NCBI RefSeq assembly: GCF_033962415.1
Contig: NZ_JAVIKH010000012.1
Span: forward strand, 1 to 64,000
Source: Candidatus Cetobacterium colombiensis
GTDB taxonomy: Bacteria > Fusobacteriota > Fusobacteriia > Fusobacteriales > Fusobacteriaceae
Direction of reading: 5' to 3'
Length of the DNA stretch: 64,000 bases
Of this stretch, positions 25,458-61,760 are shown in pieces. Numbering within the stretch: the stretch's first letter is position 1; every line of letters starts with the position of its first letter. The notes under the pieces are model-generated. The model was not told where the DNA came from. It saw only the letters and a list, made by a program, of their open reading frames with translations, and made no database searches. The position numbers and the translations under genes are program-made.

Positions 25458-26942
25458 TTAAGCTTTTTCTTTTACAAAGCTCTCTTCTGTTGCTTTTTTT
25501 AATCTAACTTTTGGTTCACTTGGTAATCCAAATCTTGGAATAAGTCTATCTAATCCTGTTAAAGTTGCTATAAGTATAGTCGATACAGCTATTAAAGCCA
25601 AGAAATTGAACTTTATTATATCCATTGCTGTAAATTTATATAATGGATAAACTGCTTGAGCAATCCCTAAATAGAATCCAATATAAACATGCCAAGGGAT
25701 TAATTGAGAACCAAATACTCCTAAAGCGTCACTAAAAGTAGCATTTCTTAATCTTAAAGTTTCTAAATCTTCTGGAGAACCCTCTACATTTTTCTCAACG
25801 ATTTCTCTTATAATTGGCCCCATAGTTACTATTTGTGCCATTTCATCAGCTAAACCAGCATTACCTAATATTGATAATACTCCATTACAGAACATTAATT
25901 GTCTTACATTTTTAGAGATAGCTACCACTATATTTGATAAAGGTCTAAATGCATCCATCAATTTCATTATTCCACCAAATGCCGCAACCCACATCATCAT
26001 TACAATTACCCATGATCCAGCGCCTTCAAATCCAGAATAAAGTAGATTTAAAAATGATGCTGTACTTTCTACTGTTCCTGCCATTAAACCTAATCCATAC
26101 GCTGAGAATATTCCTATGAATAGACATAATAATGTTGTTAATCCTCTAAACGCTGCTATTAAAACTAAAATTAATGGTATTATCATATAAGTAGGCACAC
26201 CTGTTTTAACTTGATTTAATAAAGTTACTGCTGATTCTCTTTTTTCCGCTAAAACTGTCCACACTTCTTGAGGTATTTGTCCTATAGCAGTTGCAGCATC
26301 ACCAGTTGTTGTTGGTAATCCCATTGATACTCCAGCTATATAAAAAGCAGCAATTCCTAAAACTAAAACTAAACCTGACCAATAACCTTGATGTCTAATT
26401 CTTTTTATCACTTCAACTTTTTGAATACCTGAACTTACTATTGTTGTATCTGATATCAATCCAATATTATCACCAAAACAAGCTCCTCCTGCAATTGCTC
26501 CTACTGTTAAAGCTATATTTCCACCTACTATGTGGTTAAGCCATAAGAAAATTGGTGCACATGCTGCAAATGTTCCCCAACTTGTTCCTGTAGCAATTGA
26601 TAAAACCGAAGTTACAATTATTCCTACTACAGCTACCGTTCTTCCTGTTAGTCCAACATTTAACGCTAAATTTATAATAGAAGCACCTACTCCTGTTGAC
26701 ATGAATACTTCTGCCATTGCATAAGCTACCATTAATATAAAGAATGCAACTTGCATCTCTTTAGCATTATTTATAACTGCCTCTATTATATCGTTCACTT
26801 TTTTCTTTTCTACAAAACCTGCCACTAAAGCTGCATAAACTGTTGCTATTGGTGCCGCAATTAGTGCATCGTACCCCATAAACATCAACATTGCTAAAAC
26901 AGCAACTGGACTTAATTTTAATAATTCCGTTATTCTATTCAT
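25458..26942 (-). CDS. NhaC-family transporter under lysine riboswitch control (probable lysine permease)
   Basis: A 494-residue inner-membrane protein with about 11-12 hydrophobic helices. Glycine-rich ATGTSWGTF and GGACFGDNIGLISDTT segments place it in the NhaC Na+/H+ antiporter family. The start chosen is the ATG after GGGAGG, 36 bases downstream of the first possible in-frame start. A lysine riboswitch stands directly upstream. NhaC-like genes under L-box control have been proposed as lysine transporters (LysW) from comparative genomics. By that reasoning lysine uptake, perhaps Na+ or H+ coupled, is the likely role, rather than pH homeostasis. Confidence 0.85.
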   Translation of the reverse strand: MNRITELLKLSPVAVLAMLMFMGYDALIAAPIATVYAALVAGFVEKKKVNDIIEAVINNAKEMQVAFFILMVAYAMAEVFMSTGVGASIINLALNVGLTGRTVAVVGIIVTSVLSIATGTSWGTFAACAPIFLWLNHIVGGNIALTVGAIAGGACFGDNIGLISDTTIVSSGIQKVEVIKRIRHQGYWSGLVLVLGIAAFYIAGVSMGLPTTTGDAATAIGQIPQEVWTVLAEKRESAVTLLNQVKTGVPTYMIIPLILVLIAAFRGLTTLLCLFIGIFSAYGLGLMAGTVESTASFLNLLYSGFEGAGSWVIVMMMWVAAFGGIMKLMDAFRPLSNIVVAISKNVRQLMFCNGVLSILGNAGLADEMAQIVTMGPIIREIVEKNVEGSPEDLETLRLRNATFSDALGVFGSQLIPWHVYIGFYLGIAQAVYPLYKFTAMDIIKFNFLALIAVSTILIATLTGLDRLIPRFGLPSEPKVRLKKATEESFVKEKA

Positions 26943-26999
26943 CCTAAAACCTCCCAATTTTATTTTATTTAGTTTCATCGAAATTTTAGGTAAAAAAAA

Positions 27000-27022: not shown

Positions 27023-27049
27023 CTAATCTGCAAATATATCACAAATTTT

Positions 27050-27217
27050 GGATAGCACAACATCAGACTCTCTCTGATGACAGTCATATGGATATTTTCC
27101 ATAAGCCCAACAAAGATTTTTGACATAATCTTTATTTCGGCAAACTTCCCTTTCACTTAAATTCATCGCTTCGTCTAGCTCCTTTAAGATACTCTTGTTG
27201 TTTGCAACCTCTACCTA
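27050..27217 (-). promoter_or_regulatory. Lysine riboswitch (L box)
   Basis: Read on the minus strand, conserved lysine-aptamer blocks occur in order. These are GGTAGAGGTTGC at the 5' end, AGTATCTTAAAGGAGC, GGGAAGTTTGCCGAA, TTGTTGGGC, ACTGTCATCAGAGAGAGTC followed by TGATG, and GTGCTATCC closing P1. P1 pairs GGTAG with CTATC. This matches the L-box consensus of Firmicutes in both sequence and spacing. It is followed by a terminator and the transporter gene. Confidence 0.95.
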
Positions 27218-27246
27218 AAATATTTAATTTTCGAAACTTTTAAGTT

Positions 27247-45673: not shown

Positions 45674-45756
45674 TGGTGCGAGAGGAGGGACTTGAACCCT
45701 CACGTCGAAACGCCAGATCCTAAGTCTGGTGCGTCTGCCAATTCCGCCACCCTCGC
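45674..45756 (-). tRNA. tRNA-Leu (UAG)
   Basis: Full cloverleaf with the long variable arm expected for Leu. The anticodon loop CTTAGGA sits between CCAGA and TCTGG. Acceptor GCGAGGG pairs with CTCTCGC; CCA is encoded. Last gene of a six-tRNA transcript. Confidence 0.95.
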
Positions 45757-45763
45757 AAAAAGA

Positions 45764-45839
45764 TGGTGCGTCATACTGGGCTCGAACCAGTGACAACACG
45801 ATTAAAAGTCGTGTGCTCTACCATCTGAGCTAATGACGC
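45764..45839 (-). tRNA. tRNA-Lys (UUU)
   Basis: Acceptor GCGTCAT/ATGACGC, anticodon stem CACGA/TCGTG with loop CTTTTAA, TTCGAGC in the T loop, and encoded CCA. Confidence 0.96.
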
Positions 45840-45854
45840 ATCTTATAAATTATT

Positions 45855-45931
45855 TGGGGTGACCGACGGGATTTGAACCCGCGACAACCAGTGCCACAAA
45901 CTGGCGCTCTACCAACTGAACTACGGCCACC
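45855..45931 (-). tRNA. tRNA-His (GUG)
   Basis: The anticodon loop TTGTGGC sits between CCAGT and ACTGG. The extra G at position -1, opposite discriminator C, is encoded, as expected for His. Acceptor GTGGCCG/CGGTCAC; CCA encoded. Confidence 0.96.
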
Positions 45932-45934
45932 AAA

Positions 45935-46011
<77 letters not shown>

Positions 46012-46031
46012 ATTTGATAAAATATTTATTT

Positions 46032-46107
46032 TGGAGCGGGAGACGAGGGTCGAACTCGCGACATTCAGCTTGGAAGGCTGACGCTCTACCAACTGAGCTA
46101 CTCCCGC
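46032..46107 (-). tRNA. tRNA-Gly (UCC)
   Basis: Acceptor GCGGGAG/CTCCCGC, anticodon stem TCAGC/GCTGA with loop CTTCCAA, encoded CCA. Confidence 0.96.
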
Positions 46108-46110
46108 AGA

Positions 46111-46187
46111 TGGTCGGAATAGCAAGATTCGAACTTGCGGCCCCCTGCTCCCAAGGCAGGTGCGCTACCGGACTGCGCTATATTCCG
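46111..46187 (-). tRNA. tRNA-Pro (UGG)
   Basis: Acceptor CGGAATA/TATTCCG, anticodon stem CCTGC/GCAGG with loop CTTGGGA, encoded CCA. First gene of the tRNA transcript. Confidence 0.96.
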
Positions 46188-51704: not shown

Positions 51705-52775
51705 TTAGTGTCCTCCACCGTAGTTAAAAGGTTTCTCTAAAGTGTATGGATCCCCTGGACTTGGATGTTGAGATATAGGCTTAACGTTGATGTTAGCTCT
51801 ATACTCTGTTTCTGCCCAAAGAATTCTTTGTGCTACATGTGCTTCTGGATTTAATTCCACTCCATCAAGTACCATCTCTTTAAACTTTTGATATCCAGCT
51901 CTGTCGATTAAGTGACCTCCATGAATATACATTGGCTTATGATGTAATACATTTGCAGAGAATTTCTGCCAGTTTCCGATAACTTTAATGATTACATCTT
52001 CAGTTACCCAGTTTAAGAACATCTTACCCATTCTTGGATATTGCTTTCCTGTTCTTCCACCAATTGTCATTCTATATAATTTTTGCTCTGGTCTTACCCA
52101 TGCAGATGATGGACATGCCTCAACACACTCTCCACATCCTACGCAGCAGCAAGAATCTTTAACAATTCTATGGTTTTCTAATTTTAAAACTCTTGTAGCA
52201 GCGTGGTCACAAACTTTAACACATCTTCCACATCCGATACATCTATCTTTTAAATAAATTGGCTTAGTTACTCCCATTATTCCAAAGTCATTAAAGTGAC
52301 CTTTTCCGCAATCGTTTGGACATCCAGAGATAGCCATTTTAATATGATAGTGACTTGGGAAAATTTGCTTCTCAAGTTTTCTAGCTAATTCCCAAGTATT
52401 GATATTAGCTTTTACACAGTGAGAGTTTCCTATACAAGCCATTATATTTCTAGCTCCAATTGTAGGGTATCCAGCTTTATTAACTTCCATTTCAGCTCCA
52501 CATAACTCTACATCTACTTCTCTAATATAATCCTCTAAATATGCATTTACTGCTTCAACATTTTCAAATTTTATTCCAGGAGCGTTAAGAGTTTGTCTCA
52601 TACCCATGTGGAAAGTTCCATTTCCCCATCTCTCTGCAATTTCTTGTATTACCCTTAAGTATTTAGCTTCAATTAATCCACCTGGAACACGAAGTTGTAT
52701 CATGAACTCTCCAGGTACTTTTGATTGACGGAAGCAGTTTAATTTCATTTTAGTTATATTAATATCGTGATTCAC
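51705..52775 (-). CDS. asrC: Anaerobic sulfite reductase subunit C (siroheme)
   Basis: A 356-residue catalytic subunit that reduces sulfite to sulfide. The siroheme/[4Fe-4S] site is formed by CIGNSHC and CPNDCGKGH (about 114-161). Two ferredoxin-type clusters follow (CIGCGRCVKVC and CVGCGECVEACP, about 181-222). It ends in a His/Gly-rich tail. It starts 11 bases after asrB. Electrons come from NADH through AsrB and AsrA. Confidence 0.95.
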   Translation of the reverse strand: MNHDINITKMKLNCFRQSKVPGEFMIQLRVPGGLIEAKYLRVIQEIAERWGNGTFHMGMRQTLNAPGIKFENVEAVNAYLEDYIREVDVELCGAEMEVNKAGYPTIGARNIMACIGNSHCVKANINTWELARKLEKQIFPSHYHIKMAISGCPNDCGKGHFNDFGIMGVTKPIYLKDRCIGCGRCVKVCDHAATRVLKLENHRIVKDSCCCVGCGECVEACPSSAWVRPEQKLYRMTIGGRTGKQYPRMGKMFLNWVTEDVIIKVIGNWQKFSANVLHHKPMYIHGGHLIDRAGYQKFKEMVLDGVELNPEAHVAQRILWAETEYRANINVKPISQHPSPGDPYTLEKPFNYGGGH

Positions 52776-52786
52776 TTTTTACCTCC

Positions 52787-53596
52787 TTAGTCGATTAGAT
52801 ATTTAGCTTGAGAATAGTTAAACACAGGTCCTTCTAGACATACATACACTTCATCAATTCTACAGTGACCACATTTTCCAATTGCACATGACATCTTTCT
52901 TTCAAAAGATACCCAAATTTTTTCAGCTGGAACTCCTAACTTTTCAAACTCAATAGCTGTATATTTCATCATGTTAGGTGGTCCTACAATTACAACTTCT
53001 AAATCATCAAATTTATCTGATACCATTTTTAAATGAGGTACATACTCAGTTACAAGTCCTACACACTCACCATCTAATCCACACCCTTTATCTACTGTTA
53101 ATACCATTGGATGTTTCTTTCTCCAGTTGATTATCTCATCTCTAAATAAAATTGATGAATCATCTTTAAATCCAAATAATAATTCCATTGATTGAACTTC
53201 TTCTGGATTTCTATATATATGATTGATTAAAGATCTAACTGGAGCTAATCCTGATCCTCCTGTTACAATAACCACATTTTTATTTTTAATATCAATTGCA
53301 TCAAACCCTTTTCCATAAGGTCCTCTCATTGGTAATAAATCTCCTGCATGAAGATTAAAAATCTCATCAGTTACTATTCCAACTTTTCTTATTAAAAACT
53401 CTACCCATCCTTCTGTTGCTGAGAAATCAGTAACAGATATTGGACACTCTCCTACTTTTGGTAGAGATAATTGCATGAATTGTCCAAACTTAACATTTCC
53501 TGCTTCTGGATATTCAACTCTAAATAGATATTCAATATCTGTAACTTTTTTTACATCTAAAAGTCTATATGGCGTTGGCATTATTAAATTTTCCAT
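52787..53596 (-). CDS. asrB: Anaerobic sulfite reductase subunit B (flavin/NADH)
   Basis: A 269-residue oxidoreductase of the ferredoxin-NADP reductase superfamily. The FAD-binding part (about 1-95) has the MRGPYGKGF block, and the nucleotide-binding part has VTGGSGLAPVRSLI. A C-terminal cysteine set (CAIGKCGHC...C) binds a [2Fe-2S] cluster, as in PyrK-like subunits. Its ATG overlaps the asrA stop by one base. Passes electrons from NADH to AsrA/AsrC. Confidence 0.93.
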   Translation of the reverse strand: MENLIMPTPYRLLDVKKVTDIEYLFRVEYPEAGNVKFGQFMQLSLPKVGECPISVTDFSATEGWVEFLIRKVGIVTDEIFNLHAGDLLPMRGPYGKGFDAIDIKNKNVVIVTGGSGLAPVRSLINHIYRNPEEVQSMELLFGFKDDSSILFRDEIINWRKKHPMVLTVDKGCGLDGECVGLVTEYVPHLKMVSDKFDDLEVVIVGPPNMMKYTAIEFEKLGVPAEKIWVSFERKMSCAIGKCGHCRIDEVYVCLEGPVFNYSQAKYLID

Positions 53597-54633
53597 TACT
53601 CATTACCTCCATTTAGTTTATCAACTTCTGCTGCTAATCTGTTTACAGTAGTTGAGAAAGATATAAATACAGGACACTTATCGTCACATCTTCCACACCC
53701 AACACACATATGATGCTCTTTGAATCTCTTTTTATGATCGTGGATTTTATGCATAACTTTAAATCTCATTCTCTCTCCACCAGTTTTTCTAAACGAGTGA
53801 TTTCCAGCCATATCAGTATATCCATCAACATGGCAAGATGCATTAATTCTTCTTCTTTCTCCTGCGTTAGAATCAGATGTATAGTTCATATCATATGTTG
53901 TAAAGCAAGTACAAGTTGAACACGATACAGTACAGCTTCCACACATTAAACATCTCTTGTCAAATTCTTTCCACATCTCTAAAGATTTAACTGCAATTTG
54001 AGTCTCTTTATCATTTATTTCAGGAATTCTAACAACTCTTTCATTTTCTAAAACTGGAGTTATTAAGAAGTCCATTTCTTCGTTTCCAGCAAAGTAAGAG
54101 TTAAATTCTGAATCTTTAGTTTCAACTAAAACTTCTTCTCCATTGAACTTTACTCCAAATGCATACTCATCAGCTGATCCAGTACCCATTGAAGCACAGA
54201 AGCAAGTATCCCAACCTTTTGATGGACATTCCATTAATATAAACTTTGTTTTTTCTCTCATTCTTTTATAGTATGAATCCTCAAATCCACCATTTTTTAA
54301 GAATATATCATCATATCTTTTTATTGAGTGAATGTCACAAGCTCTTGCAAAAACAAGCATTGGTCTATCATCAACAACTTTTGATTCTCTATAATCTGCA
54401 TCTGTAAAGTATAATACAGTCTCAGTTATTGGACTTAATGCTTCCTTTGCTGCATAATCAGATTTTTCATCATGTACTATCTCATCTGCTGAATAAACTC
54501 TATCATATCTTACAATATCGGTATCCGAATATCTTCCCTGCTTAGGAAATCTTTTTGGAGCATATATTTTATACTCTTTGCTAAGATTTTTTAACAAGCT
54601 ATCAAAATTTTCTGCTGTTATTTTGTATCCCAT
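53596..54633 (-). CDS. asrA: Anaerobic sulfite reductase subunit A (Fe-S)
   Basis: A 345-residue electron-transfer subunit with two ferredoxin-type cysteine groups near the C-terminus (CLMCGSCTVSCSTC and CVGCGRCDDKCP, about 230-320) and a CFCASMG segment. The length and cysteine layout match Salmonella AsrA. First gene of asrABC, with a clear promoter upstream. It is divergent from a pseudouridine synthase gene, with palindromes in the shared intergenic region. Confidence 0.94.
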   Translation of the reverse strand: MGYKITAENFDSLLKNLSKEYKIYAPKRFPKQGRYSDTDIVRYDRVYSADEIVHDEKSDYAAKEALSPITETVLYFTDADYRESKVVDDRPMLVFARACDIHSIKRYDDIFLKNGGFEDSYYKRMREKTKFILMECPSKGWDTCFCASMGTGSADEYAFGVKFNGEEVLVETKDSEFNSYFAGNEEMDFLITPVLENERVVRIPEINDKETQIAVKSLEMWKEFDKRCLMCGSCTVSCSTCTCFTTYDMNYTSDSNAGERRRINASCHVDGYTDMAGNHSFRKTGGERMRFKVMHKIHDHKKRFKEHHMCVGCGRCDDKCPVFISFSTTVNRLAAEVDKLNGGNE

Positions 54634-57392: not shown

Positions 57393-58367
57393 ATGCTTTT
57401 TAATAAATTAAGTAGTTATGATAAACACAAAGTTTTTAAGAATATGTTAGCTCCATACACTGCAGTGCTTATTGCACAATATTTCTCACTAGGATATCAA
57501 TATTCTGCTGCTACAATTTGTATTTTAAGTTTAGAAAGTACTAGAAAAGCTTCTCTTAGAAGTTCTTTTGAAAGAGTTACCGCAGCATCTTTTGGACTGA
57601 TATTATCTGCTACTATTATTGGATTATGTGACTTCAATCCAATTTCTCTTGTTATTTTCACTGGGATTTTTATGCCTTTATGTATACGTTTTAATCTTTT
57701 ACAAGGTTTTTTTACTAATGTTGTTTTAGCAAGTCATTTTTTGTTAGATAAAAACGTTGATGTTTTTTTTGTATTAGACCAATTTTTTTTATTATTAGTA
57801 GGAGTTCTCTGTGCTATTTTTTTCAACTTATATATGCCTAGTAGAAATAATGAAATTAATTCACAACTTCAAAAAATTGACTCTATTATAAAAATAATAC
57901 TCTTAGATTTTGCTAAAGCTTTAAAATACAAAGCAGTCTCTTTAAAACAAGATGAACTTTTTGAAGAACTTAAAGTTAATCTCGATGACTGCAGAGTTTT
58001 AGTTGAAACAGAAAAACAAAACATTTTTTTTCAAAAAAAAATTGAAGTTAGCAATGATTACTCTAATAAGTTTTCAGAATATATAATTCTTTCTAAAATA
58101 AGAGAATGTTTTAATAAAATTTCTGATGATATTTCTATAACAAATGAGTTAGCATCTATTTTAAAAGATATAGCCACTTTAAATTTAAATAAGTATACTT
58201 ATCGATTTATTTTGAAGAGATTAGAACAATCAGAAAAAAAATTTAGAAAAGATTTAGAAGAAAGTTCTTTAACCATTGAAAATGAAACTATGTACTTTCA
58301 ACTTATAGAAAGTATCAAGGATTTAATTACAATTAGAAGTGAAAAAATTTTTAAAGGAAATCTCTAA
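57393..58367 (+). CDS. FUSC/ArAE-like (aromatic acid exporter family) membrane protein
   Basis: A 324-residue protein. The N-terminal half has about 4-6 membrane helices (about 14-150) of the ArAE_1/DUF939 type, and the C-terminal half is a cytoplasmic helical domain rich in Lys and Glu. Related proteins are called putative aromatic acid exporters, without proof of substrate. The start chosen is ATG 57393 after GGAGG; an in-frame TTG 15 bases upstream would overlap that site. It lies 51 bases before the amino-acid antiporter gene, separated by a weak hairpin, and may belong to the same unit. Confidence 0.75.
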   Translation: MLFNKLSSYDKHKVFKNMLAPYTAVLIAQYFSLGYQYSAATICILSLESTRKASLRSSFERVTAASFGLILSATIIGLCDFNPISLVIFTGIFMPLCIRFNLLQGFFTNVVLASHFLLDKNVDVFFVLDQFFLLLVGVLCAIFFNLYMPSRNNEINSQLQKIDSIIKIILLDFAKALKYKAVSLKQDELFEELKVNLDDCRVLVETEKQNIFFQKKIEVSNDYSNKFSEYIILSKIRECFNKISDDISITNELASILKDIATLNLNKYTYRFILKRLEQSEKKFRKDLEESSLTIENETMYFQLIESIKDLITIRSEKIFKGNL

Positions 58368-58418: not shown

Positions 58419-59882
58419 ATGGCTGATGATGGTAAAAAACTTGGAGTAATAGCCCTTACTGCACTTGTTATTAGTGCGATGATTGGGGGAGGTGTTTTTA
58501 ATTTACCACAAAATATGGCTCAATCTGCAGGTCCTGGTGCTATTATCATAGCTTGGGTTATAACTGGAGTTGGAATGTGGTTCGTTGCTAATACTTTTAG
58601 AATTCTTGCTGCTGCTAGACCTGAAGCTACAACGGGTATCTATGCTTACGGTGAACTTGGTTTTGGAAATTTCACTGGTTTCCTTATGGCTTGGGGATAT
58701 TGGATTTGTAACTGCTTTGCTAATATTGGTTATGCAGTTCTTCTTATGGATTCTTTAAACTATTTCTTCCCAGGGTATTTTACTGGTGGAAATAACTTTA
58801 ACTCAGTTATTGGTGGATCTTTAGTTATTTGGGTTATATATTTTGTTGTTTTAGCTGGTGTTAAAGGTGCTGCTTCATTAAATACAATTGGTACAATTGG
58901 AAAATTAGTTCCTCTTGTTCTTTTCTTATTAATAACTGCTTTTGTTTTTAAAGTTACATTCTTTTTTACAAACTTTTGGGGAACAGAAACTATAACTACT
59001 CTTGCTGATAAACCTCTTGGAAGTCTTTTAGAACAAGTTAAGGGTACAATGCTTGTAACTCTTTGGGTTTTCATAGGAATAGAGGGTGCGGTTGTTGTAT
59101 CAGATAGAGCAAAATCTCAATCAGAAGTTGGTAAGGCTACTCTTTTAGGTTTCTTAGGATGTTTAATTCTTTATGTTTTATTATCTTTACTTCCTATTGG
59201 ACATTACTCTCAAGGACAACTTTCAACTATGGCTGCTCCTTCTACTGCTGCTGTTTTAGGTGGAATTGTTGGTAAGTGGGGCGAATGGTTAATGAACATT
59301 GGAGTTATGATTGCTATTCTAAGTTCTTGGCTTGTTTGGACTATAATGCTAGCTGAATTACCATTTGCTGCTGCAAAAGGAAAAACATTCCCTAAAGCAT
59401 TTGCTAAAATTAATAAAAATGATTCTCCATCATTTTCACTATTAATTTCTAGTATCATTATGCAAGTTACTATGATTGTAGTTTATTTCTCTAACAACGC
59501 TTGGAACTTGATGTTAAGTATCACAGGAGTTATGGTTTTACCGTGTTATATAGTATGTACTGCATATTTATGGAAAATTGCTGCTAAAAACGATAATTAT
59601 CCTACTGATATATTTGCAAGTAGAAAAACTGCTGAAATAACTGGAATTTTAGGAACTGTTTATGGACTTTGGCTTGTATATGCAGCTGGATTAAACTATA
59701 TGCTTCTTGCTGCTGTTATATACGCTATAGGAATTCCATTCTTTATGAAAGCTAGAAAAGAGTTTGATCCTAGTAATCCAGAATTTAATAAAGATGAAAA
59801 AATATTCTCTATCATTCTTTTCATTTTAGGAGTATTAGGTTTAATTTACCTAATAATGAATTATAAAGCTCTTTTAGGGTAG
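58419..59882 (+). CDS. APC-family amino acid antiporter (probable histidine/histamine or arginine/ornithine exchanger)
   Basis: A 487-residue transporter with about 12-13 helices of the basic amino acid/polyamine antiporter group (APC superfamily). VISAMIGGGVFNLPQNMA in the first helix is the unwound substrate-binding segment. Overall it resembles ArcD-type arginine/ornithine antiporters. It is the first gene of a tight operon with an amidino hydrolase (10 bases on) and a histidine decarboxylase. Exchange of histidine for histamine, or of arginine/citrulline for ornithine, is therefore inferred. AGGAGG precedes the ATG. Confidence 0.85.
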   Translation: MADDGKKLGVIALTALVISAMIGGGVFNLPQNMAQSAGPGAIIIAWVITGVGMWFVANTFRILAAARPEATTGIYAYGELGFGNFTGFLMAWGYWICNCFANIGYAVLLMDSLNYFFPGYFTGGNNFNSVIGGSLVIWVIYFVVLAGVKGAASLNTIGTIGKLVPLVLFLLITAFVFKVTFFFTNFWGTETITTLADKPLGSLLEQVKGTMLVTLWVFIGIEGAVVVSDRAKSQSEVGKATLLGFLGCLILYVLLSLLPIGHYSQGQLSTMAAPSTAAVLGGIVGKWGEWLMNIGVMIAILSSWLVWTIMLAELPFAAAKGKTFPKAFAKINKNDSPSFSLLISSIIMQVTMIVVYFSNNAWNLMLSITGVMVLPCYIVCTAYLWKIAAKNDNYPTDIFASRKTAEITGILGTVYGLWLVYAAGLNYMLLAAVIYAIGIPFFMKARKEFDPSNPEFNKDEKIFSIILFILGVLGLIYLIMNYKALLG

Positions 59883-59892
59883 GTGACTTTTT

Positions 59893-60816
59893 ATGAATAG
59901 TCAAATTACAAGTAAAGTTCTTATGATTAAGCCTACAAAATTTTACTATAATGTTGAAACAGCTGTTAATAATGCATATCAAAAAGATTTAAAAGAGGAT
60001 CCTAATTTAGTTCAAGCTCGTGCTCTAAATGAGTTTGATTCTCTTGTTGAAAAAATTAAATCTGTAGGAATTGAAGTGGATGTAATTAATGATACATCCA
60101 CTCCATATACACCTGACAGCATATTTCCTAATAACTGGTTCAGCTCTCATCAAGATGGAAAACTTATTATTTATCCTATGTTTGCTAATGATAGAAGACT
60201 AGAAAGGGCAAAATTTTTATCAAATTTAAAGGAAATTCAAAATAAAACTTCTATAACTGTTCTAGACTTAACCTATTTCGAAAAAGATGATAAGTTTTTA
60301 GAAGGTACTGGTGCTCTTGTTTTAGATAGAATTAACAAAATTGCATACTGTTCTCTTTCTCCAAGAGCAAACGAGGATGTTTTGAAAGAGTTTTGCAACC
60401 TTACTAATTATAAGGCTATAAAATTTCATTCAGTACAAAATATCAACAATATTCTAACTCCAATTTATCATACAAATGTTATGATGGGAGTTACTGAAAA
60501 TTTTGTTGTTATTTGTTTAGATTCTATAACTGATCTAAAAGAAAGAGAAAAAGTTATTACTTCTATTTCAAATTCTGGAAAAGAGATTATAAATATAACT
60601 TTAAATCAAGTTCTTAAATTTTGTGGAAATGTTTTAGAATTAAAAAATCTAAAAGGAGATAGATATACTCTTATGTCTAAATCTGCTTTCCAAGGTTTTA
60701 CAAAAGAACAACTAGAGATTATAAAGAAAAGTTCAGAAATTATATTCTCTGATATTACCACTATCGAAACTTATGGTGGTGGCTCTGTTAGATGCATGAT
60801 TGCAGAACTTTTTTAA
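59893..60816 (+). CDS. CtlX-type amidino hydrolase (guanidino-modifying enzyme superfamily)
   Basis: A 307-residue pentein-fold enzyme. DSIFPNNWFSSH (about 75-86), LEGTGALVLD, the His of PIYHTNVMM and the C-terminal GGGSVRC with the likely nucleophile Cys301 match the COG4874/CtlX group. Relatives include a citrulline ureidase of Francisella and dimethylarginine hydrolases. Substrates may be citrulline, arginine derivatives or another amidino compound; this cannot be decided. The start is 10 bases after the antiporter stop, and the stop lies 17 bases before hdcA. Confidence 0.8.
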   Translation: MNSQITSKVLMIKPTKFYYNVETAVNNAYQKDLKEDPNLVQARALNEFDSLVEKIKSVGIEVDVINDTSTPYTPDSIFPNNWFSSHQDGKLIIYPMFANDRRLERAKFLSNLKEIQNKTSITVLDLTYFEKDDKFLEGTGALVLDRINKIAYCSLSPRANEDVLKEFCNLTNYKAIKFHSVQNINNILTPIYHTNVMMGVTENFVVICLDSITDLKEREKVITSISNSGKEIINITLNQVLKFCGNVLELKNLKGDRYTLMSKSAFQGFTKEQLEIIKKSSEIIFSDITTIETYGGGSVRCMIAELF

Positions 60817-60833
60817 TTAAAGGAGGAATAAAA

Positions 60834-61712
60834 ATGAGAATTGACAAAACTGCTATTAGTTTTTATGACGATTACTGTGATGGGTATGGTGCTCCTGGTT
60901 CAACTGGAAACGGTTATGTTTCTGTTTTAAAAGTTTCTGTGGGAACTGTTCCTAAAACTGATGATATTTTAATTGATGGAATTGTTGCTTATGATAGAGC
61001 TGAGGTTAACGATGCTTATGTGGGACAAATAAATATGTTAACTGCCTCTTCATTTTGCGGATTAGCAGGACAAGTTTGGGGTTATGATCTAGCTAAACAC
61101 GATTGTATTGCTAATGATTCTCATCCTACTGTTTTAGAAGTTCCACAATTTGATGGTTCTATTTTAAAAGTTTATGATGCTAAACCTCTTTTAGAAGCTG
61201 GGGTTGAACTTTTTGGAACTGAATCAAAAAGAAGATTTACTCCTTTACCTGGTTCTCATATGATTTGTGCTAATAAAGGTGTAACTGCATTTAGACCAAA
61301 AGAAAACAGAGAGTTTAAAGAAAATGAAGGATACGGTGTTTGGTGTTTTATCGCTATCTCCATAGCTAAAGATAGAAATAAAGATGCTAGCCTATTTATT
61401 GAGGATGCTGGAATTTGGACTGAAAATGATAATCCTGAAGATTTAAAAAAATTCTTAGAAGATCATAGAAAAGCAATTGTTTGGTCTGTTGTTGAATGTG
61501 GAAAAGATTCTCATGTTGCTTATGATAGAACTTACGTTGGTTTTGCTTATACAATTATGAAGCCTGGTGAAATTGGTACTTCATTAACTTGTGGTCCTTA
61601 TGTTACATTAGCTAGAAATGCCATACCTGAAAAAGGATTTGGAGAATTAAATAATTTAACTTTATCTCAATGGTTGAGTGTTCAAGGACTAGAACCTATT
61701 GTAAAAAAATAA
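60834..61712 (+). CDS. hdcA: Pyruvoyl-dependent histidine decarboxylase proenzyme
   Basis: A 292-residue proenzyme closely resembling Lactobacillus HdcA, which decarboxylates histidine to histamine. The self-cleavage site is Ser72-Ser73 in NMLTASSFCG. Cleavage there gives a beta chain (1-72) and an alpha chain starting with the pyruvoyl group. Other shared blocks are DGIVAYDRAE (about 48-57), YDAKPL, CANKGVTAFRPK, EGYGVWCFIAISIAKD and FIEDAG. The start chosen is the ATG after AGGAGG, not the longer reading inside ctlX. No HdcB-like maturation gene is present. Its decarboxylation consumes a proton, so it can aid acid resistance. Confidence 0.95.
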   Translation: MRIDKTAISFYDDYCDGYGAPGSTGNGYVSVLKVSVGTVPKTDDILIDGIVAYDRAEVNDAYVGQINMLTASSFCGLAGQVWGYDLAKHDCIANDSHPTVLEVPQFDGSILKVYDAKPLLEAGVELFGTESKRRFTPLPGSHMICANKGVTAFRPKENREFKENEGYGVWCFIAISIAKDRNKDASLFIEDAGIWTENDNPEDLKKFLEDHRKAIVWSVVECGKDSHVAYDRTYVGFAYTIMKPGEIGTSLTCGPYVTLARNAIPEKGFGELNNLTLSQWLSVQGLEPIVKK

Positions 61713-61728
61713 TTTTGATAAAATTTTA

Positions 61729-61760
61729 GCTACAACTTTTATTCAAGTTGTAGCTTTTTT
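61729..61760 (+). terminator. Terminator of the antiporter-ctlX-hdcA operon
   Basis: A perfect 10-bp stem (GCTACAACTT / AAGTTGTAGC) with a 6-base loop and 6 Ts. Confidence 0.92.

What the first reader, a model, noticed from the sequence alone, without database searches (positions are those of the whole stretch)
58419..61712. Antiporter - CtlX hydrolase - pyruvoyl histidine decarboxylase operon
Three genes with gaps of 10 and 17 bases and a shared terminator join an APC antiporter, an amidino hydrolase and an HdcA with an intact Ser-Ser self-cleavage site. Known hdc clusters of lactobacilli carry hdcA, hdcP and often hdcB or hisS; the CtlX partner is not part of the classic set. If the antiporter exchanges histidine for histamine, the organism would secrete histamine and gain proton-motive force and acid tolerance. 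HdcA identity is seen in sequence; transport specificity is inferred.
Basis: partly seen in the sequence, partly recalled or inferred. Interest (0 to 1): 0.75.

Follow-up and report, generated by a model that had tools for sequence, protein, structure and literature searches.

The report
Histamine-secretion operon with citrulline hydrolase
A gut bacterium of the genus Cetobacterium carries a three-gene operon that very probably turns histidine into histamine and swaps the two across its membrane, with an added gene for an enzyme that probably breaks down citrulline; the histamine part is a known kind, and the added enzyme is the new detail.

Summary
Antiporter (58419-59882), CtlX (59893-60816) and HdcA (60834-61712) are intact, with gaps of 10 and 17 bases and one terminator. 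HdcA passes the pyruvoyl-HDC cut-off, is 52% identical to the solved L. saerimneri enzyme and keeps Ser-Ser and the catalytic residues checked. The antiporter falls in the clade of hdc-linked antiporters, apart from ArcD. CtlX passes its family cut-off, keeps the FPNN/HTN/Cys signature of a putative citrullinase, and folds most like arginine dihydrolase and DDAH. Among 98 fusobacterial genomes 14 have hdcA; 12 have both genes, adjacent in 6. Four Cetobacterium relatives have a lysine/arginine-type decarboxylase before the antiporter. The window has lost it there; its genome carries it elsewhere beside a second antiporter copy. So the window shows a trimmed amine-exchange island. Histamine secretion by Cetobacterium and decarboxylase-antiporter-HdcA clusters were predicted in 2021 (PMC8465708); the CtlX partner is not named in that text or in other papers found here. 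The genome lacks arginine deiminase and true ornithine carbamoyltransferase, so CtlX is the only citrulline-consuming enzyme found among those sought. A new variant of a known kind; no activity is proven.

The parts
57393..58367 (+). ArAE_1-family membrane protein (aromatic acid exporter family member 1), 52 bases upstream of the antiporter; conserved neighbour in all five Cetobacterium loci, possibly co-transcribed, function in the system unknown
   Evidence: PF06081 E=3.1e-26; same place in L054, L055, L056, L058
58368..58418 (+). Deletion scar: in four relatives a 751-aa PLP amino acid decarboxylase gene lies here; the window keeps only bases resembling its last few codons and the ribosome-binding site
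   Evidence: junction sequences; gene maps
58419..59882 (+). APA-family antiporter of the hdc-linked (HdcP) clade, 487 aa; probable histidine/histamine exchanger
   Evidence: TIGR00905 542.6 bits over cut-off; NF040512 histamine antiporter 538.5 under its cut-off of 725; tree with hdc-linked antiporters, 100/99
59893..60816 (+). CtlX, 307 aa, putative citrulline hydrolase (citrulline to ornithine)
   Evidence: NF046062 397.5 over cut-off 334; FPNN at 60124-60135, HTN at 60469-60477, Cys301 at 60793-60795, all invariant in 22 homologues; model pLDDT 94; closest folds ArgZ/AgrE and DDAH
60834..61712 (+). HdcA, 292 aa, pyruvoyl-dependent histidine decarboxylase proenzyme
   Evidence: TIGR00541 476.6 over cut-off 346.65; 52% identity to L. 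saerimneri 30a HdcA, catalytic residues conserved
61047..61052 (+). Ser72-Ser73 codons, self-cleavage site that would give the pyruvoyl group
   Evidence: alignment to the solved chains
61728..61755 (+). Intrinsic terminator-like hairpin with T run, the end of the operon

Best explanation
This is a chromosomal amine-exchange operon of a Cetobacterium. HdcA cuts itself between Ser72 and Ser73, forms a pyruvoyl group and decarboxylates histidine to histamine, using up one cytoplasmic proton. The antiporter brings in histidine (net charge 0) and lets out histamine (+1), so each cycle leaves the cell interior more negative and more alkaline. CtlX hydrolyses citrulline to ornithine, ammonia and CO2, which also consumes acid; taking in neutral citrulline and letting out ornithine (+1) would have the same charge balance, either through this antiporter or through an ArcD-like one. 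The window is a trimmed form of a larger island: relatives add a lysine/arginine-type PLP decarboxylase before the antiporter, and some an ArcD-like antiporter after hdcA. Shown by sequence: gene identities, conserved active sites, conserved linkage, loss of the decarboxylase here and its presence elsewhere beside a second antiporter copy. Inferred: all activities, transport specificity, the link of CtlX to the same physiology, and any acid tolerance.
For: HdcA: family cut-off passed; 52% identity and identical residues at D53, I59, Y62, D63, E66, S81, F83, K155, F195, E197, D198 of the L. saerimneri enzyme. Antiporter: clade of hdc-linked antiporters with L. reuteri HdcP and S. capitis, separate from ArcD at 100/99. 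CtlX: cut-off passed, FPNN/HTN, the signature that PMC9007349 ties to citrulline; in the related genome G036 the ctlX homologue lies beside carbamate kinase and ornithine carbamoyltransferase genes, both over cut-off. Linkage in 6 genomes of two genera; no ctlX elsewhere in the 12 genomes of the genus. No arcA in the genome; its only OTC-family protein is aspartate carbamoyltransferase in a pyr cluster. Purifying selection on all three.
Against: No activity has been measured. CtlX biochemistry is unproven in any organism according to PMC9007349. G002 has antiporter-hdcA without ctlX, so ctlX is not needed for the histidine part. G036 and the five hdcA-positive Fusobacterium-type genomes have ctlX away from hdcA. 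The antiporter is below the cut-off of the histamine-antiporter model. L. lactis ArcD1, of the same transporter family (APA), moves citrulline poorly though it binds histidine well (PMC5300872).
Confidence: 0.72

Rival explanations
1. The histidine/histamine pair is real, but ctlX is a general citrulline-salvage gene that merely shares the transcript. It would supply ornithine for polyamines and use another transporter.
For: ctlX occurs in 27 of 98 fusobacterial genomes above cut-off, mostly alone among unrelated genes; G002 has the pair without ctlX; ctlX evolves about three times faster than its neighbours.
Against: Within the genus, ctlX is found only inside this operon (5 of 5), and the same adjacency is found in another genus.
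Confidence: 0.45
2. CtlX is an arginine dihydrolase (arginine to ornithine, CO2 and two ammonia), and the system exchanges arginine for ornithine beside histidine for histamine.
For: The closest solved folds are the arginine dihydrolases ArgZ and AgrE, Z 30 against 27 for DDAH; ArgZ also has an Asn (N71) that its crystallographers mutated; the second antiporter of relatives groups with ArcD.
Against: Only 16% identity to ArgZ; the HTN motif replaces an Asp that holds the guanidino group in arginine deiminases (PMC9007349). The ArgZ active site could not be compared residue by residue: neither structure paper is held and a profile search did not reach the chains.
Confidence: 0.2
3. The antiporter mainly serves the PLP decarboxylase (lysine, arginine or ornithine against its diamine), and HdcA uses it only in part.
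For: In G000 contig C3 the decarboxylase gene is followed 21 bases on by a second copy of the same antiporter, 91% identical, with the same residues at all AdiC substrate-contact positions checked; relatives have one antiporter for all enzymes.
Against: In the window the antiporter has only CtlX and HdcA as partners; G002 and Clostridium/Eubacterium relatives pair it with hdcA alone; the clade is hdc-linked.
Confidence: 0.2

Closest known systems
hdc clusters of Limosilactobacillus reuteri and Tetragenococcus halophilus (hdcC-hdcA-hdcB-hisS)
   Same: antiporter followed by pyruvoyl hdcA; homologous proteins (HdcA 43-48% identity, antiporter 42% for L. reuteri)
   Different: no hdcB in the operon and none found in the genome; no hisS; ctlX lies between antiporter and hdcA
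Three-component arginine/histidine decarboxylation clusters (adiA-antiporter-hdcA) of Fusobacteriota and others, PMC8465708
   Same: relatives of the window have exactly a PLP decarboxylase, an antiporter and hdcA together; C. somerae is in that paper's list of predicted secretors
   Different: the decarboxylase of Cetobacterium is of the LdcA-like subfamily and below the arginine decarboxylase cut-off; ctlX is added; the window has lost the decarboxylase at this place
CtlX, putative citrullinase of Phaeobacter and Pseudomonas (PMC9007349)
   Same: family cut-off passed; FPNN and HTN motifs
   Different: there it neighbours ornithine cyclodeaminase or aruG, here an antiporter and hdcA
Staphylococcus capitis plasmid with hdcA-antiporter next to arcA-arcD
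   Same: histamine module next to a module that releases ammonia and ornithine precursors from an arginine-family amino acid
   Different: arginine deiminase and ArcD there, CtlX here; separate, divergent genes there, one operon here

Membership tests
Pyruvoyl-dependent histidine decarboxylase (HdcA, TIGR00541/PF02329) | match over curated cut-off along the whole length | tested here: met
   476.6 against 346.65 bits, residues 2-288; PF02329 502 bits
Pyruvoyl-dependent histidine decarboxylase (HdcA, TIGR00541/PF02329) | Ser-Ser cleavage site and catalytic residues of the L. saerimneri enzyme | tested here: met
   all positions checked identical except D54 to I and V196 to I
Pyruvoyl-dependent histidine decarboxylase (HdcA, TIGR00541/PF02329) | self-cleavage and histamine formation | not testable with these tools
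   needs purified protein
Classic lactobacillus hdc cluster | hdcB and/or hisS next to hdcA | tested here: not met
   absent from the cluster; a clostridial HdcB, 52% identical to that of L. reuteri, finds nothing in G000, G005, G008, G031, G036, G068
Histidine/histamine antiporter (NF040512) | match over curated cut-off | tested here: not met
   538.5 against 725 bits
Histidine/histamine antiporter (NF040512) | descent from the hdc-linked antiporter clade | tested here: met
   12 rows, 100/99, apart from ArcD and antiporter 2
Arginine/ornithine antiporter ArcD (TIGR03810) | match over curated cut-off | tested here: not met
   500.5 against 591 bits
CtlX citrulline hydrolase (NF046062) | match over cut-off and Asn in place of both guanidino-binding Asp | tested here: met
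   397.5 against 334 bits; FPNN, HTN
CtlX citrulline hydrolase (NF046062) | turnover of citrulline to ornithine | not testable with these tools
   needs an enzyme assay
Arginine dihydrolase (ArgZ/AgrE) | active-site residues of ArgZ | tested here: inconclusive
   fold matches, Z 30 at 16% identity; residue-level comparison not possible
Three-component decarboxylase system (decarboxylase-antiporter-hdcA) | PLP decarboxylase gene adjacent | tested here: not met
   absent in the window, present in four relatives and elsewhere in the same genome

The most novel reading that the evidence does not exclude
One antiporter of the histidine/histamine clade also exchanges citrulline for ornithine, so that a decarboxylase and a ureido-hydrolase with the same charge balance share it. 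This would be a proton-motive and acid-resistance system that uses citrulline without arginine deiminase, ornithine carbamoyltransferase or carbamate kinase.
Probability: 0.25. Interest if true: 0.6.

Novelty: new variant of a known kind. Interest (0 to 1): 0.4.

Why it matters
Cetobacterium is a common fish-gut genus (general knowledge), and histamine acts on gut and immune tissue. If the operon works, members of this genus make histamine in the animal gut. The ctlX partner would join histidine and citrulline use in one transcript and would give a simple setting in which to test the unproven enzyme CtlX. The duplicated antiporter in this genome, one copy with CtlX and HdcA and one with the decarboxylase, is a natural test of what one antiporter can serve.

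Tried and rejected
Chance ORFs or frame artefact: rejected by family scores, conserved synteny and dN/dS. CtlX as arginine deiminase or agmatine deiminase: no such family match over threshold, and the Asp positions are Asn. An arginine deiminase pathway in the genome: not found. A maturation factor HdcB: not found. CtlX next to hdcA outside Fusobacteriota: none in the Clostridiales and Shewanella/Plesiomonas-order genomes whose flanks were read; hdcA itself is rare there (5 of 226, one of these a fragment, and 3 of 395), and G098-G101 have no ctlX at all. Bacteroidota, where PMC8465708 reports adiA-antiporter-hdcA, could not be surveyed. A functional difference between the two antiporter copies: none seen at the substrate-contact positions. 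Promoter prediction: matches do not exceed shuffles. The HdcA of G003 lies on a 3.5-kb contig and is as close to the Clostridium one as to its own genus; suspected contamination and not used. Supporting papers for ArgZ, AgrE and LdcA are not held.

Full report
What is there. The three genes are real, intact and at the coordinates given. The antiporter ends at 59882, ctlX starts at 59893 and ends at 60816, hdcA starts at 60834 after an AAAGGAGG and ends at 61712. A hairpin with a T run follows at 61728-61755. Family scans name them as a basic amino acid/polyamine antiporter (TIGR00905), citrulline utilization hydrolase CtlX (NF046062) and pyruvoyl histidine decarboxylase (TIGR00541), each over its cut-off. 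The gene 52 bases upstream, in the same direction, is an ArAE_1-family membrane protein. The organism is a Cetobacterium: the closest named loci are uncultured Cetobacterium MAGs (HdcA 96 and 91% identical) and Cetobacterium sp. 2A (79%).

HdcA. It aligns to both chains of the solved L. saerimneri 30a enzyme with 52% identity. Of the positions checked, D53, I59, Y62, D63, E66, S81, F83, K155, F195, E197 and D198 are identical, and the Ser-Ser cleavage site is present; D54 is Ile and V196 is Ile. Histidine decarboxylase activity is therefore very likely but not shown. The lactobacillus clusters carry a maturation protein, HdcB. A clostridial HdcB, 52% identical to that of L. reuteri, finds no relative in G000, in three other fusobacterial genomes of its family, in a Fusobacterium-type genome, or in Clostridium tarantellae and [Eubacterium] tenue. 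So this branch of HdcA probably matures without it (inference).

Antiporter. It scores almost equally against the general model and the histidine-histamine model NF040512 (538 bits, but under that model's strict cut-off of 725). In a tree it lies with hdc-linked antiporters, among them those of L. reuteri and S. capitis, and apart from ArcD of S. capitis and the second antiporters of Cetobacterium (100/99; some long branches among the latter). That supports histidine/histamine exchange. L. lactis ArcD1, of the same transporter family, binds histidine, lysine, arginine and ornithine well and moves citrulline slowly (PMC5300872), so a broad substrate range is plausible.

CtlX. All 22 fusobacterial homologues aligned keep FPNN, HTN and the terminal Cys. 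PMC9007349 argues that these Asn residues, in place of the Asp of arginine deiminases, fit citrulline, and that CtlX makes ornithine; it also says biochemical proof is lacking. An AlphaFold2 model is confident (mean pLDDT 94), and its nearest solved folds are the arginine dihydrolases ArgZ/AgrE, then DDAH. Arginine dihydrolase is therefore a live rival. In genome G036 the ctlX homologue lies beside genes for carbamate kinase and ornithine carbamoyltransferase, both over their cut-offs, which fits citrulline. The window genome has no arginine deiminase, and its only carbamoyltransferase hit is aspartate carbamoyltransferase in a pyr cluster. If CtlX uses citrulline, that citrulline must mostly come from outside (inference; arginine biosynthesis was not surveyed).

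Neighbourhood in relatives. Of 98 fusobacterial genomes 14 have hdcA; 12 have both hdcA and ctlX (one with a broken ctlX), and the two are adjacent in 6. In the genus of the window, 5 of 12 genomes have ctlX, and in all 5 it stands between antiporter and hdcA. G002 has antiporter-hdcA without ctlX. In a second genus (G031) ctlX-hdcA stand together behind a cluster with a pyruvoyl arginine decarboxylase-like protein, an agmatine deiminase-like protein and N-carbamoylputrescine amidase, while the antiporter is on another contig. The ctlX tree puts the unlinked ctlX of G036 beside the linked one of G031 (94/89), so the linkage arose once and was lost in G036, or arose twice; this is not settled.

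A larger island, trimmed in the window. Four relatives have a 751-aa PLP decarboxylase directly before the antiporter; three of them have a second, ArcD-like antiporter 22 bases after hdcA. The decarboxylase's best solved match is 6q6i, which I recall as the P. aeruginosa lysine decarboxylase LdcA although the entry is named arginine decarboxylase; its substrate is open. In the window this gene is missing: the 51 bases between ArAE and antiporter resemble the upstream region and the last codons of the lost gene. The same genome has the decarboxylase on contig C3 (87% identical to that of L056), followed 21 bases on by a second antiporter copy (91% identical to the window's), and a copy of the second antiporter with a degraded end on contig C11. 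A weakly resolved tree places the C3 antiporter copy outside the copies of the window and its relatives, so the time of the duplication is open. The two copies agree at every AdiC substrate-contact position checked.

How it works. The histidine part is inferred with high confidence from family knowledge: decarboxylation consumes a proton, and exchange of neutral histidine for charged histamine moves charge outward. The ctlX part is less certain. Citrulline to ornithine has the same charge change and also consumes acid, so the two reactions could share one antiporter or a common role in acid stress. Nothing here tests transport.

What is known. PMC8465708 predicted histamine secretion for Cetobacterium somerae and several Fusobacterium species, noted that no member of the phylum had been tested, and described adiA-antiporter-hdcA clusters in Fusobacteriota. 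Its text does not mention ctlX; its figures were not readable here. A search for CtlX with citrulline found two papers, neither about hdc. The finding is thus a new variant of a known kind, resting on a sound observation.

Noticed in passing
L120:7860-7990 (G000 contig C3): Decayed remnant of a pyruvoyl-dependent arginine decarboxylase-like gene directly upstream of the PLP decarboxylase; the intact relative lies at L057:3003-3587.
   Followed up: partly
L150:999-2315 (G000 contig C11, minus strand): Second, ArcD-like antiporter of the window's genome with a degraded C-terminal end; intact relatives lie after hdcA in three other genomes.
   Followed up: partly
L120:10312-11775 (G000 contig C3): Second copy of the window's antiporter, 91% identical, behind the PLP decarboxylase.
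   Followed up: yes
window 27045-27221, minus strand: Lysine riboswitch (RF00168, 115 bits) ahead of the gene at 25458-26978.
   Followed up: no
window 45677-46187, minus strand: Array of six tRNA genes.
   Followed up: no
window 51705-54633, minus strand: Three close genes that look like an anaerobic sulfite reductase operon (read by eye only).
   Followed up: no
L053 (G003 contig C212): An hdcA on a 3.5-kb MAG contig, 71% identical to the window's HdcA and near the clostridial ones in the tree; suspected contamination.
   Followed up: partly
L158 (Staphylococcus capitis plasmid NZ_CP102088.1): hdcA-antiporter beside arcA-arcD, a parallel pairing of histamine and arginine modules.
   Followed up: no
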